64,000 nt of DNA from Spiroplasma endosymbiont of Amphimallon solstitiale (GTDB lineage Bacteria; Bacillota_I; Bacilli_A; Mycoplasmatales; VBWQ01), in contig NZ_OZ034999.1 in assembly GCF_964030965.1 (NCBI RefSeq), forward strand, positions 992,001-1,056,000. The letters are read 5' to 3'. This document shows, piece by piece, positions 12,199-17,917 of the stretch. The number at the start of each line of letters is the position of its first letter. Within the stretch, counting starts at the first letter, position 1. A program made the position numbers and the translations under genes. The notes beneath the pieces are model-generated. The model was not told where the DNA came from and did no database searches. It worked only from the letters and a program-made list of their open reading frames with translations.

Positions 12199-13002
12199 CA
12201 AATAAAAATAAATTATTAATAAGGAGATCAAATATTATGTCTAAAAAAAATAAAACAAAAATTACTGCTTCGTCGACAAAAGAAAAAACAACAGCAAAAA
12301 TAAAAAAAAGCGTGACTGATTATAATGAATTAAAAATAAAAAAAAGTGGTTTCTTAAGCACAGTTATTAAATACTTTAAAAAATATCCACTACTTTATCT
12401 AATTGCAATACTAACCACTATTGCTTCTTCAATAATTTCAGTGATTATTCCTAAAATTACTAATAATTTTTTAGCTACCCCCGATGGTTTTCAATGAGAA
12501 AAAATTACTACTTTAGCTTATATTTTAATTAGTTTACAAATTGCATCAGGATTATTTATGTACTTTCGTAATTTAACAGGAAGCATCATTGGTGTTAAAG
12601 TTGAAATTGAATATCGAAATAAAGTTTTTAAACATTTACTAGATTTAGATATGTCATATTATGAACACCGCAAAATTGGTGACACTTTAACAAAACTAAT
12701 TAGTGATACTAGTGTTATTGGTGAAAATATGCAATCTATTCCTTTAACTATGCTTAGTTCAATTGTGACCTTTTTTGGTTCAATTTACGTTATTTTTTCT
12801 TTAAATTGACAATTATCATTAATTGTTTTAGGTATTGTTTTATCAATTTTAATAATATCAGTATTAAATGTTCAAATTATTCGTTATTTAAACTATAAAT
12901 GAAGAAAAGTTTTTTAATTTTGTAGAAAAGTAGTGGTAAAATAAAAAAAGTCATCAACTTGACTTAAAATTTGATTTTATTAAATTTTGGGATTTATTTT
13001 TT

Positions 13003-14132
13003 TTACAAACTGAAATATAACACATTGGATTTTTGATAAGGGGTTAATTTTTAATTATGTAGAAAAGTATGGATGACCAAAAATTATTCATCAATTTACA
13101 CTTAAAATATTATTTTTAATTAAAAATTTGTTAAAAGTAACATTATTTAGTTTAAAAATTCTCTAAAAATAACACTTTATCATGTATCATTACTTTTCTA
13201 CAAAATTAAAGGGTTAATCCGTACTGTTGATATTTTCATTTCCATAAATTGAGGTAATTTTGAATATTGGTAAATCCAATGCCATGGTAATGAGTAATAA
13301 ATTCTTTTAAACTTGATTGTATTTTACTGACATTACTTAATTTTTTATAATTTAATTCTTTATTTTCTTTTGATTTAAACTGCTGGATAGTGGATTTAGT
13401 TTGTTTAGCTACTGTATCATATAATACTTGCATATCACAAACTATAATTGAATTTTCTTCGATAAGTTTCGATGTTAAGTTTTCTTGTACTCATTTTTTA
13501 TTTAATCTTTTAGTATTTGTTGTTTGAGCATAGATATTTCGGTTTTCATCAATTGCCATTTGAATACAACAATTTAAATCTTTAGCATTTTCTTCAATTC
13601 ATTGTTTTCTTGGATCATTTGGATCTTTAAAGTTTCCTTTATGAATTTCTTTGATAAAAGTTTCGTCAACTTCAATTCTAGCTTTTAATTTTACAAATTG
13701 ATTTTGTGTTTTTACTAATTGTGTTGATTTCATAAATTTTTGACGATTAAATCAGGCAGTTTTATTTGTAGTATTAATAAATTGAGAAATAATGTAAGCA
13801 GATTGACCTAAAGTAGCTATTTGTATCAATAAATCTCATTGATCATGAGATAAATGACTTCAATAAAAATAATGATTTTTAAAAGCATGAAAAGTAATAT
13901 TACAACTTTTACATTTATATCTTTGCTTATAATCTTTACTACCATATTTAGTACACAAAAAAGAACTACAATCTGGACATTGAATCCCTTTCTCTTTGAA
14001 TTTTTGTTCGACTGCTTCAAATTTTTCTTTTTTCTCAATTTGTTTAATTCTAGTTTTATTTTCTCTAAAAATCTCAATAAAATCTTTATCAGACAAATTA
14101 TTTAAAATTTCTTTTACTGTATTTTTATTCAT
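13003..14132 (-). pseudogene. IS1595-like transposase interrupted by MITE F
   Basis: The start ATG at 14132 and the zinc ribbon are identical to the intact copy. MITE F falls in the codons for the last 20 or so residues (in GLTPYQ), so the product would lose only its C-terminal tail. A one-base change gives KYQQYG instead of KYQHYG. Confidence 0.88.
13049..13211 (+). mobile_element. 163-bp MITE, copy F
   Basis: Nested in IS1595-like copy 3. The duplication GGGTTAAT fits if the right end has lost its last base. One internal substitution lies in the AGTTTAAAAATTC segment. Confidence 0.88.
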
Positions 14133-15181
14133 TTAAAATCACCTCTTTAATATTAAAAATACCATATAAAAATATATTTTTGCTAATTTTACTAATACCA
14201 CTACTTTTCTACAAAATTAAAGGAAAAGTTTACACTGAAGTTAATGCTGATATTACTGATCGACTAAATACTATTACTTTAATTAAAAGTAATGCTACAG
14301 AAAAAAGTGAAAATAAAAGATTTTCTAATGAACATCTTAAATATTACCAAGCAGCAAAAAAAACTATTACTTTTGAAAGTTTTACTAGAGCATTACTAAT
14401 TACATTACTAACAGGAATTAACATTGTTGGTTTAGTTGCTGGTTTCATGTTTGTAAGTAAACACATCATTAGTATTCCAACACTAATTGCTTTTTTATTA
14501 GCAGTCAACACTTTAATTTTCCCAGTTATTCAAAGTATTCAATTCTTAGGTAATTGAGCTAAAACATCAACTTCAATTTTAAGAGTTAATGAAATTCTTA
14601 ATATTAAACCAAAAATAGTTAATAAAGAAAAAGCCTTACCAGTAAAACAAATTACTAGTGATATTATTTTTGAAAATGTTAATTTCCGCTATGATGAAAA
14701 AGAAGACTGAATTTTAAATAACTTCTCTTTCACTTTTGAAAAAGGTAAAAGTTATGCTATTGTTGGTGCAACTGGTGTCGGAAAAACTACTATTTCTAAG
14801 TTATTACTACGTTACTATGACCCTGCTGAAGGAAGAATTTTAATTAATAATAATACTGATTTACGTGATATTGACTTAGCACAATACTTACATCATATTG
14901 GCTATATTGAACAAGATCCACAAATTTTATTTGGCACATTTGCCGAAAACATTAGTTATACTAAGCAAGGAGCAACTTTAGAAGAAATCAAAATTGCTGC
15001 AAGTAAAGCTAACTTACATGATTACATTGAACAATTACCTAATGGTTATAATACAATTTTAGGTGAACGTGGGATTAACTTATGTGGTGGTCAAAAACAA
15101 AAAGTAGCTATTGCACGTATCTTTTTAAAAATCCAGAACTATTAATTTTAGATGAAGCTACTAGTGCTTTAGATAATATTG

Positions 15182-15344
15182 TTTTAATTATGTAGAAAAG
15201 TATGGATGACCAAAAATTATTCATCAATTTACACTTAAAATATTATTTTTAATTAAAAATTTGTTAAAAGTAACATTATTTAGTGTAAAAATTCTCTAAA
15301 AATAACACTTTATCATGTATCATTACTTTTCTACAAAATTAAAG
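15182..15344 (+). mobile_element. 163-bp MITE, copy G
   Basis: Perfect 8-bp duplication TAATATTG at 15174-15181 and 15345-15352, within the ATPase domain of the ABC exporter. Confidence 0.92.
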
Positions 15345-15584
15345 TAATATTGTCGAAAAGGAAATACAAGCACAATTTAATAAATTAATGATTAGTCGTA
15401 CTAGTATTATTATTGCCCATCGTTTATCAACAATTAAAACTGTTGATAAGATTTTAGTTTTAGAAAAAGAAAAAGGTTTAGTTCAAGTTGGTACTTTTGA
15501 TGAATTAAAAGTTAAAGAAGGTCACTTTAAACATTTATATGAAGCTGGAATTATGGGGTAATAAAGATAGGAAGATAAATTATA

Positions 15585-16460
15585 ATGAAAAAACAAAAAC
15601 AACAATTAAAAGAAATGTTTTCTTTTTTTAAACAATTATTAAATCAAGATTCTTGAATTAAAGAACTTCATTCAGTTACTAATACTGAAGAAAAGAATGA
15701 GAATAAAAAAATTAAAAATATTCATCTCATTGATAATAAACTATTAGTTTCTTTTTGAAAAAAATATTCAATTTATAATATTGAAATTTATGATCTTTGA
15801 AAATCATTTAAAAATATTTCTTTAAATAATATGCAGCAAGTTAATAATAAAAATTATCATCAAATTTTCTTGTCAACAGAATTATCAATTTTTTTAATAA
15901 GATTAATTAAGACAGAAAATAAAATTAACTTTAATCAAACTTATGATTTTTTAGATTATGAATATATTCAAATTCAAGATATATTTAATTCACTAGTTAA
16001 TATTTTAGATAAATTAAATTTAATACCCATCCAAATTAATTTAACAGAAGAAAATAAAGAACAAGCAATAAAAATTTCAAAAAAACAAAATTGAACTGAA
16101 TTTGATGCAGAAGATATTCAATTTTTGAAAAAAGTTAAAACTGATTATTTTAAAAACAGATTCTATAAAAAATATTTCAATAAAAACATAGATAAAATTA
16201 ATTTTTACGAACATTACTTAGCAGATGCTAGAAATCAAATTACACACTATCCAATTATTAATCATAGTTTAAAAAATAATGAAGAATTCAAAATAATTTT
16301 ATTTAACTTACAAAATAATACAAATAATAAAATTCCATTTGAAACTAGTTTATTATTTTTATCTTTTAAGCGTGGTATTGTTTTAGCAACCTTATATTTA
16401 TTTTTAGTTTATGAAGAAATGCTAAAAATAGATATTAAAAATATAGATTTATTTTTTTAA
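15585..16460 (+). CDS. Unknown protein with a possible C-terminal HEPN motif
   Basis: 291 residues, a single open frame with several TGA-Trp codons. The start ATG is 23 bp after the ABC gene, with GATAGGAAG upstream. No signal peptide. Mostly alpha-helical and lysine-rich. Near residue 216 it has YLADARNQITHYP. This is Arg-Asn followed by His at the R-x4-H spacing that defines HEPN ribonuclease and nucleotide-binding domains. A preceding helix (KINFYEHYL) and a following hydrophobic helix (RGIVLATLYLFLVYEEML) are in keeping with the four-helix HEPN fold. No adjacent nucleotidyltransferase (MNT) partner gene is seen. Function unknown; the HEPN idea is inference from one motif. Confidence 0.6.
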
Positions 16461-16489
16461 TATTTGATAAAAATAAACACTAAAATTTT

Positions 16490-16652
16490 TTTTAATTATG
16501 TAGAAAAGTATGGATGACCAAAAATTATTCATCAATTTACACTTAAAATATTATTTTTAATTAAAAATTTGTTAAAAGTAACATTATTTAGTGTAAAAAT
16601 TCTCTAAAAATAACACTTTATCATGTATCATTACTTTTCTACAAAATTAAAG
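16490..16652 (+). mobile_element. 163-bp MITE, copy H
   Basis: Perfect 8-bp duplication AAAATTTT at 16482-16489 and 16653-16660. Intergenic, 29 bp after the preceding stop codon. Confidence 0.92.
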
Positions 16653-16668
16653 AAAATTTTTAATAAAA

Positions 16669-16705
16669 CCTGAATTGTAAATATAAATGGGACAGTTTTT
16701 TAAAA
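16669..16705. repeat. Tandem extra copy of the IS30 left end (37 bp)
   Basis: The first 37 bases of the IS30 element (CCTGAATTGTAAATA to the T-run and TAAAA) are repeated directly before the element proper. It is either a remnant of a second IS30 or a slipped duplication at the end. Confidence 0.85.
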
Positions 16706-17766
16706 CCTGAATTGTAAATATAAATGGGACAGTTTTTTAAAATAATTGTATTAAATCTATTGGTCTTTTATAAGATAGTGATTTTCTGGGTGTAGAATTA
16801 ATTTGAAATGCTATAGTATTTAAATCTTTTTGTTTATATGAAGATAGATCTGTAGATTTTGGTAAATATCTTCTTAAAATACTATTATTATTTTCATTTA
16901 AACCTCTTTGACAAGGTTTACCAGGATCTGCAAAATAAATCTTAACATTACAATTTTTTTCGATTAATTTTCATTTACTAAATTCTTTACCACGATCAAA
17001 AGTAATAGTTTTAACTGTTCCTTTTTGTAACTTTGAAATAAATTTTATTATACTTTTTGTAATATTTTCTGATTTATTATTTTTAGTTGCTAAAGGAATT
17101 GTGGTTTTTGATCATATATCAGCTAAAGTAATAATAGAACTTTTATGATCTTTACCAATGATAGTATCACCTTCTAAATGACCAAATTCTTCTATATTTT
17201 TAATATTAGGAATGATTAAATTTCTTTCATGAATAGACTTACAATTATTAATTCTGCCCCTAGTTTCTTTTTGTTTGTGAGGTTTATTTTTTCCTTTTCT
17301 CAATAAGTTATTTTCATCAAAACCCATTCGATTTGTTTTAAACATGTTATATAAAGTTTTTGTTGAAATACTTTTTATTTTATTTTCCTTTAAAAAATTA
17401 GCAATTATATCAAGAGCATAATTTTTAGTAATTAACAAATGATTAATAGTATTAATTTCTATTAAAGTTAAAATTATTAATTTTCTACCTGCATTTTGTT
17501 TATTTTTTTGAATTTTATTCAATATTTCTAATGGTAATAAGTTTTGATTTAATAATCTACAAACTCTATGTACAGTTGATTTACTATAATCAATGGCTTT
17601 TGCTATTTTACGAATCGAAAATCCATAACTTTTATATTCTTTTATTGCTATTATTGATTCAATAGTCAGATACTTATACATTGTGCTAATTCCTTTCTTT
17701 TCTTAATTATAGAATTAACACAATTTAATTTTTATATAAGTGTCCTTTTTAATTTTACAATTCAGG
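16706..17766 (-). mobile_element. IS30-family element, copy 1 (1061 bp)
   Basis: Starts CCTGAATTGTAAA and ends in the inverse, TTTTACAATTCAGG. Terminal repeats are imperfect beyond the first 13 or so bases. Intact transposase inside. Confidence 0.92.
16737..17681 (-). CDS. IS30-family transposase
   Basis: 314 residues with TGA-Trp. The N-terminal helix-turn-helix is RKIAKAIDYSKSTVHRVCR. Catalytic motifs: GHLEGDTIIGKDHKS (first Asp), TITFDRGKEFSKW (second Asp) and CQRGLNENNN-SILRRYLP (Glu), in the usual IS30 order. The start ATG at 17681 follows AGAAAGGAATTAGCACA. It moves the IS by cut-and-paste or circle formation. This copy reads NNNS where the others read NNNG. Confidence 0.92.
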
Positions 17767-17917
17767 ATTTTTCTTTTAAACAAGAGTTTTTTATTATGAA
17801 AATGAAATTAATATACCAATTAATTCTAAAAAACAATTCATAAATTTTTTTTAGAATTCCTTATGAATTAAAAAGCAATTCTATCAAAATAAAAACTTTA
17901 CCATACTTTAAAATTCA

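What the first reader, a model, noticed from the sequence alone, without database searches (positions are those of the whole stretch)
16200..16270. Possible HEPN ribonuclease motif in an orphan protein
The 291-residue product of 15585-16460 has YLADARNQITHYP, an R-N-x3-H motif between helices, as in HEPN toxins and nucleases. No known partner gene adjoins it; downstream lies only a MITE and IS30. It could be a lone HEPN protein or the remnant of a toxin-antitoxin pair whose partner was lost to insertion.
Basis: inference. Interest (0 to 1): 0.5.

Follow-up and report, generated by a model that had tools for sequence, protein, structure and literature searches.

The report
Lone HEPN-like protein, Spiroplasma-like bacterium
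This gene probably encodes a stand-alone RNA-cutting protein of the HEPN kind, from a small and fast-changing family that sits in different places, often near defence genes, in Spiroplasma-like bacteria; it may be a self-contained anti-phage or toxin gene, but its activity is untested.

Summary
The motif is real: the 291-residue, code-4 protein of 15585-16460 carries R216-N217-x3-H221. Alone it is weak evidence (1% of shuffles of this protein have it). Iterated profile searches found a family: eight loci in 6 of 320 genomes of the order; outside the order, only one chance-level match in the class search. R216, N217 and H221 are invariant in 8 of 8 aligned rows, and D142 in an upstream helix in 7 of 7 rows that reach it (N in the broken G002 copy). 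A 10-row AlphaFold2 model (pLDDT 80, pTM 0.80) is all-helical, with the motif at a helix end, the Asp in an earlier helix and a helical insert between, as described for HEPN domains. No solved structure matched significantly, and profile similarity to Abi_2 does not go beyond the motif, so HEPN membership is likely, not proven. No MNT or other partner recurs beside the eight loci; several have defence-type neighbours (DRT-type reverse transcriptase; KAP NTPase and DUF4145; Z1 and MTES_1575). The window copy sits in a slot whose content differs between related genomes. Best reading: a lone HEPN-like RNase effector; a partner lost to insertion is not supported. New member of a known kind.

The parts
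15585..16460 (+). gene for the 291-aa HEPN-like protein (code 4, stop included)
   Evidence: relatives
15569..15574 (+). AGGAAG, ribosome-binding-like site 10 nt before the ATG
   Evidence: read; inference
15855..15917 (+). predicted helix 91-111, assigned as HEPN helix-1 (conserved F103)
   Evidence: model; conservation; helix numbering is inference
15957..16037 (+). predicted helix 125-151, assigned as HEPN helix-2, with N/D139 and D142
   Evidence: helix numbering is inference
16008..16010 (+). codon of D142, candidate acidic active-site residue
   Evidence: 7 of 7 rows; N in the broken G002 copy
16038..16202 (+). mostly helical stretch between the assigned helices 2 and 3 (residues 152-206)
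   Evidence: inserts at this place are described in PMC3710099 section 7
16203..16247 (+). predicted helix 207-221, assigned as HEPN helix-3
16230..16247 (+). R216-N217-Q-I-T-H221, candidate RNase motif (Rx4H, N after R)
   Evidence: R, N, H invariant in 8 of 8 rows
16344..16427 (+). predicted helix 254-281, assigned as HEPN helix-4; holds the KRGIVLATLYLFLVYEEM stretch and invariant Y271
15562..17880 (.). slot with differing content: similarity to relatives stops at the ABC stop codon and resumes at about 17880 in G003
   Evidence: blastn; other contents
16494..16655 (.). MITE-like repeat downstream of the gene (another copy at about 15183-15344 interrupts the ABC gene)
   Evidence: ends approximate
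16737..17681 (-). IS30-type transposase
   Evidence: HTH_38 and rve

Best explanation
The gene encodes a stand-alone HEPN-like ribonuclease of a small family seen, in what was searched, only in the order to which the window's genome belongs. The C-terminal two thirds form a helical HEPN-type domain. R216 and H221 at the end of one helix, N217 next to the Arg, and D142 in an earlier core helix are proposed to make a metal-independent RNase site like that of other HEPN RNases (2'-OH attack leaving a 2',3'-cyclic phosphate), probably as a dimer. The less conserved N-terminal ~90 residues probably restrain the activity or sense a trigger such as phage or plasmid entry, as proposed for the N-terminal domains of AbiJ-type proteins; once released, RNA is cut and growth stops, sparing the population. 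The gene moves as single-gene cargo among chromosomal slots, conjugative elements and defence clusters. Shown: the ORF, the family, residue conservation, predicted helices, neighbourhoods, the changing slot. Inferred: HEPN membership, RNase activity, dimer, regulation, mobility, anti-phage role.
For: Family: G002 (E 1.6e-45, single protein); G031 (7.5e-5) and G433 (0.0045) with a C-half profile; G575 first copy (6.6e-20) and G555 twice (6.7e-9, 1.1e-5) in the next round; G575 second copy (2.5e-22) in the last. P0001 and P0007 align over 247 residues at 30% identity, two-sequence E 1e-27. R216, N217, H221, F189, D203, L212, Y271 invariant in 8 of 8 rows; D142 and F103 in 7 of 7, both outside the seed profile A4. 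Model pLDDT 80, pTM 0.80; motif at the end of helix 207-221, D142 in helix 125-151, helical insert between, long helix 254-281 after, as described for HEPN in PMC3710099 sections 6-7. 29 of 30 Abi_2 proteins fetched carry RNx3H. Defence-type neighbours: reverse transcriptase matching PADLOC RT_UG31, E 1.3e-39; KAP NTPase and DUF4145; Z1 and an MTES_1575 helicase-nuclease. Two loci lie beside VirB6-like genes similar to each other (named by eye). Slot content differs.
Against: No family-library hit of weight: Pfam (7 members and the consensus), NCBIfam (8 rows, best E 0.013), PHROGs (7 members, best E 0.1), PADLOC (3 members). No solved-structure sequence match. Foldseek nothing at E <= 0.001; the only HEPN RNase in the VIA-align list, Csm6 5yjc_B, is rank 40 at Z 4.0, 133 residues, 7.1 A, level with unrelated bundles. 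hhalign against Abi_2 does not exceed what the motif block alone gives. Distant relatives were first found with a profile holding the motif, so its conservation is partly selected; chance matches reached E 6e-5 in the same search. Model confidence falls to 50-60 in residues 221-260, just after the motif, and no coordinates were at hand to check that D142 lies beside R216/H221. Two of the eight loci sit among housekeeping genes. The G002 copy is broken and dN/dS against it is 0.89.
Confidence: 0.68

Rival explanations
1. Toxin half of a two-gene toxin-antitoxin module (HEPN-MNT or similar) whose antitoxin was lost at this locus by MITE/IS insertion.
For: MITE and IS30 directly downstream; HEPN proteins are often toxins of HEPN/MNT pairs (PMC3710099 abstract).
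Against: Comparison of ORFs of 70 aa or more within 9 kb of the eight loci (E <= 1e-4) shows no shared gene directly beside the family; the shared genes are VirB6-like, glycosidase, PTS, RpiR-type and endonuclease-IV-like genes (by eye) and one pair that looks antisense to PTS genes. No neighbour scanned with Pfam is an MNT; not every neighbour was scanned. G555 P0007 stands between def (by eye) and a PfkB kinase.
Confidence: 0.08
2. All-helical protein of another fold in which the invariant R-N-x3-H is structural, e.g. a regulatory or nucleic-acid-binding bundle; not a nuclease.
For: No fold or profile match to a known HEPN family beyond the motif.
Against: R, N, H and Asp at 142 and 203 are the most conserved polar residues of a family otherwise mostly 20-30% identical; R, N, H and D142 stand in the order and helix positions of HEPN active sites.
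Confidence: 0.2
3. A decaying mobile-element cargo gene without a present function.
For: The G002 copy has two frameshifts in homopolymers and an IS at its 3' end; the first G575 copy has no good start codon; dN/dS 0.89.
Against: Six of eight loci have an open frame, and the motif is kept in all eight; the window gene stays intact behind an ABC-transporter gene broken by an IS, a frameshift and a MITE.
Confidence: 0.12

Closest known systems
HEPN superfamily RNases (PMC3710099)
   Same: Rx4H motif with N after R at the end of a helix, acidic residue in an earlier core helix, helical insert between, long helix after
   Different: no significant profile, sequence or fold match to any HEPN family in the libraries used; long N-terminal part; activity untested
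Abi_2 / AbiF / AbiD (PF07751)
   Same: single protein; RNx3H with the same spacing in 29 of 30 fetched members; the window's genome also holds an Abi_2 gene
   Different: no hit with the Pfam model; hhalign similarity is confined to the motif block
AbiA C-terminal HEPN (PF18732) with Abi-type reverse transcriptase
   Same: one relative (G433) lies one small ORF away from a DRT/AbiK-like reverse transcriptase
   Different: separate genes, not fused; one of eight loci; the PF18732 search rang in none of 5 genomes nor in the 14 controls, so nothing follows from it
HEPN-MNT toxin-antitoxin pairs (HepT/MntA)
   Same: HEPN-type motif
   Different: no MNT among the neighbours scanned and no shared partner

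Membership tests
HEPN superfamily | Rx4-6H motif with polar residue after R | tested here: met
   R-N-x3-H in the window protein; R, N, H in 8 of 8 rows
HEPN superfamily | motif at the end of helix-3, start of the loop to helix-4 | tested here: met
   predicted helix 207-221 ends at H221; next long helix 254-281, with a short helix 233-243 in between at low confidence; predicted, not solved
HEPN superfamily | acidic residue in helix-2 (when present) | tested here: met
   D142 in helix 125-151, 7 of 7 rows; N in the broken G002 copy; nearness to the motif in space not checked
HEPN superfamily | four-helix up-down bundle shown by structural match | tested here: inconclusive
   all-helical model; no Foldseek match at E <= 0.001; Csm6 at Z 4.0, rank 40
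HEPN superfamily | profile-profile link to a known HEPN family | tested here: inconclusive
   hhalign v 30 Abi_2 proteins: score 23.6, probability 3%; 0 of 150 full permutations reach it, but 58 of 150 with the motif block kept do; reversed profile 19.8; other HEPN families not compared this way
HEPN superfamily | metal-independent RNase activity | not testable with these tools
   needs purified protein
Abi_2 (PF07751) | score over the Pfam cut-off | tested here: not met
   no Abi_2 hit for seven members or for the consensus
HEPN-MNT toxin-antitoxin | adjacent MNT nucleotidyltransferase gene | tested here: not met
   no shared partner in eight loci; no MNT among the neighbours scanned, which leaves out a few, such as the def- and coaE-like genes and the fragments beside the G031 copy

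The most novel reading that the evidence does not exclude
Spiroplasma-like bacteria carry their own family of single-gene HEPN effectors that need no partner, in which the N-terminal part is both sensor and safety catch, and these genes are swapped as interchangeable cassettes: the slot behind the ABC-transporter gene holds this protein in one genome and a 182-aa RNx3H protein with no detectable kinship (P0010) in G005.
Probability: 0.25. Interest if true: 0.55.

Novelty: new member of a known kind. Interest (0 to 1): 0.42.

Why it matters
Defence and toxin genes of Spiroplasma look poorly charted: three papers of the library hold both 'HEPN' and 'Spiroplasma' and three both 'Spiroplasma' and 'antiphage defense', none about such a gene by title and abstract start. 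A lineage-restricted family with HEPN anatomy that Pfam, NCBIfam, PHROGs and PADLOC did not recognise would add a testable immune or toxin effector in a group that includes insect symbionts (recalled), and shows that orphan helical genes with an invariant R-N-x3-H deserve a second look.

Tried and rejected
Searches that found nothing: single-protein Pfam, NCBIfam, PADLOC, PDB, plasmid, phage, viral and genome-contig searches and profile or relative-based ones. They mean 'not found at that sensitivity'. First AlphaFold2 job with 3 rows: pLDDT 39, not used. Foldseek and VIA lists: unrelated bundles; Csm6 in the list is not counted as support.

Dropped hits: of 13 of 395 class genomes at E <= 0.01 only G000, G031 and G433 held up. 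In one search, G064 and G070 fall inside a leucyl-tRNA-synthetase-like ORF and G505 in an unrelated ORF (by eye); G008 and G629 were not read one by one. In one search G209 (E 0.006), and G097, G495 and G552 (E 0.02-0.04), were not read one by one. The loci of all these are among the 1717 ORFs (49 loci and the window) on which the family model was run: it marked only the family loci, best other score E 0.055. The 45 later loci (930 ORFs) gave only the window gene again; best other E 0.084. In the final search seven of the eight loci were already in the profile, so their E-values there are not independent; the first-detection values are in the For line.

Considered and not kept: L047:2410-3150 (RNx3H, 247 aa) as a ninth member: the family model does not find it. 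P0010 as a member: -7.9 bits; of its 4 of 317 matches one is itself, G444 lies in an ABC-type ORF, G592 and G481 were not read. RidA- and aminotransferase-like fragments beside the G031 copy (by eye) as a RiboL-PSP/HEPN link: they look like decayed metabolic genes. AbiH-likeness of L047:11620-12348, suspected by eye: no Pfam hit. The codon comparison was out of frame for two of three pieces and is replaced.

Literature: only listings and abstract starts were seen for 'HEPN + Spiroplasma' (3), 'HEPN domain ...' (25, 15 listed), 'Spiroplasma + toxin-antitoxin' (37, 15 listed), 'mollicutes / abortive infection / defense systems' (683, 15 listed), 'HEPN + Mycoplasma' (58, 15 listed), 'Spiroplasma + antiphage defense' (3), 'Abi_2 + Spiroplasma' (0). 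Of PMC3710099 I saw the outline and abstract, sections 6, 7, 12 and part 1 of 2 of section 5. No claim of absence from print is made beyond these.

Full report
Observation. With TGA read as Trp the window encodes an intact 291-residue protein at 15585-16460 (+), 23 bases after the stop codon of an ABC-transporter reading frame, with AGGAAG ten bases before the ATG. It contains YLADARNQITHYP; R216-N217-x3-H221 lies at 16230-16247. The motif alone is weak: 206 of 20000 shuffles of this protein contain RNx3H, and shuffles of the 43 window ORFs of at least 150 aa give 0.63 on average, one seen.

Finding a family. Direct searches of Pfam, NCBIfam, PADLOC, PDB sequences, plasmids, phages, viral contigs and GTDB contigs gave nothing. 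A genome search found one relative, on a 15-kb contig of G002 that also carries ParA-like and conjugation-type genes (by eye): 43% identical, but broken by two frameshifts in homopolymer runs and an IS at its 3' end. A profile of the C-terminal halves picked up G031 (E 7.5e-5) and G433 (E 0.0045). The next round over 320 genomes of the order added G575 (6.6e-20) and G555 twice (6.7e-9, 1.1e-5), along with chance matches as low as 6e-5; the last added a second G575 copy (2.5e-22). In that last round the other seven loci were already in the profile, so their very low E-values there are not independent. Two-sequence comparisons support the links: P0001-P0007 E 1e-27 over 247 residues at 30%, P0005-P0006 6e-24, P0001-P0005 5e-8, P0001-P0006 7e-8. 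P0008 is linked to P0007 only over 28 residues around the motif (1e-5), and more firmly by the profile. A class search of 395 genomes gave G000, G031, G433 and one chance-level match, G209 at 0.006. The family model run on 1717 ORFs of the loci then held, and on 930 ORFs of 45 later loci, marked only family loci.

Conservation. R216, N217, H221, F189, D203, L212 and Y271 are identical in 8 of 8 rows, D142 and F103 in 7 of 7 rows that reach them; D142 is N in the broken G002 copy. D142 and F103 lie outside the seed profile, so their conservation does not come from how the relatives were found; that of the motif is partly selected.

Structure. AlphaFold2 with 10 rows gave mean pLDDT 80.1 and pTM 0.80 (an earlier 3-row job gave 39). 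All elements are helices. Helix 207-221 ends at H221; D142 is in helix 125-151; residues 152-206 between them are mostly helical; a long helix 254-281 follows. Confidence drops to 50-60 in residues 221-260. This is the anatomy described for HEPN domains: Rx4-6H at the end of helix-3, a polar residue (mostly N, D or H) after the Arg, an acidic residue in helix-2, inserts between helices 2 and 3 (PMC3710099 sections 6 and 7). Against it: Foldseek found no PDB or viral match at E <= 0.001; in the VIA-align list the HEPN RNase Csm6 (5yjc_B) is only rank 40, Z 4.0 over 133 residues at 7.1 A, level with unrelated bundles. A profile comparison with 30 Abi_2 proteins gave hhalign score 23.6 (probability 3%); none of 150 full column permutations reached it, but 58 of 150 with the motif block kept did. 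The shared signal is the motif, so superfamily membership is likely, not demonstrated.

Neighbourhoods. G433: between an HNH-like ORF (below the Pfam cut-off) and, one small ORF away, a reverse transcriptase that matches PADLOC RT_UG31 (E 1.3e-39), near a VirB6-like gene resembling one on the G002 contig ('VirB6-like' by eye). G031: near RmuC, a KAP NTPase, a weak nucleoside-deoxyribosyltransferase match and a DUF4145 protein, itself a HEPN family. G575 first copy: next to a DUF4011/MTES_1575 helicase-nuclease, with a DUF4420-like protein (below the cut-off) and a Z1 protein further on. G575 second copy: a few kb from a superfamily-1-type helicase. G555: one copy between def and a PfkB kinase, the other between coaE and an unknown 214-aa gene (def and coaE by eye). 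Window: behind a decayed ABC-transporter gene. No gene recurs directly beside the family. The similarities between flanks are a VirB6-like pair, glycosidases, PTS and RpiR-type genes, an endonuclease-IV-like pair about 5 kb or more away, and one pair that looks antisense to PTS genes (names by eye). No MNT was seen among neighbours scanned with Pfam. The lost-partner idea is therefore unsupported.

A changing slot. Against five congeneric genomes, window similarity runs to the ABC stop codon (15561-15564) in all five; it resumes at 17880 with 98% identity in G003 and at about 20101 in G001 and G004; no downstream match was seen within the compared stretch in G002 and G005. In between, the window has the HEPN-like gene, a MITE and IS30; G003 and G002 have other ORFs that the family model does not mark; G005 has a 182-aa protein, P0010, that also carries RNLLTH, a motif found in 45 of 20000 of its shuffles. 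P0010 does not score with the family and has no credible relative in 317 genomes.

Evolution. Window and G002 copies differ at pS 0.285 and pN 0.259 (NG86 ratio 0.89 over 271 codons), so the protein changes fast; part of this may be decay of the broken copy. An 18-codon stretch, KRGIVLATLYLFLVYEEM, has a single synonymous difference; 17 of 20000 codon permutations give such a run. Recombination or a local constraint could explain it; both are inference.

Mechanism (inferred). A stand-alone HEPN-like RNase, probably restrained by its own N-terminal region until a trigger, as proposed for AbiJ-type proteins (PMC3710099 section 12). The role, anti-phage or element-stabilising toxin, is open; the mixed, often defence-like surroundings favour the former.

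Verdict. New family of a known kind; interest moderate. The most novel reading not excluded is an interchangeable set of lone HEPN-like effectors in these bacteria.

Noticed in passing
window 12237-15561: The ABC-transporter gene upstream is broken: a transposase ORF at 13206-14132, a frameshift near 15130 and a MITE at about 15183-15344 interrupt it; G005, G002 and G004 have long open frames.
   Followed up: partly
L056:1774-2319 (G005): A 182-aa protein with RNLLTH and no detectable kinship to the family fills the same slot behind the ABC gene.
   Followed up: partly
L047:2410-3150 (G575): A 247-aa protein with LRNIIVH about 6 kb from the second G575 copy; not found by the family model; the only one of 109 neighbour ORFs of 150 aa or more with RNx3H.
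   Followed up: partly
window 16368-16421 v L002:2278-2331: 18 codons near the gene's 3' end are almost identical in DNA between copies that differ at about a quarter of other sites; recombination or hidden constraint.
   Followed up: partly
G000:C1:1233405-1233842 (outside the window): The same genome holds an Abi_2 (HEPN) gene, E 4.5e-13, over the family's cut-off.
   Followed up: no
L020:8122-9888 (G433): A DRT/AbiK-like reverse transcriptase lies in what looks like a conjugative element, close to a family member.
   Followed up: partly
window, 18 places from 1311 to 55190: A MITE-like repeat with an almost invariant 23-base end occurs 18 times in 64 kb (17 exact, one with one mismatch).
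   Followed up: no
L021, L046, L047: Three of the eight loci lie near 6-phospho-beta-glucosidase-type or PTS genes (by eye), a possible insertion hot spot.
   Followed up: no
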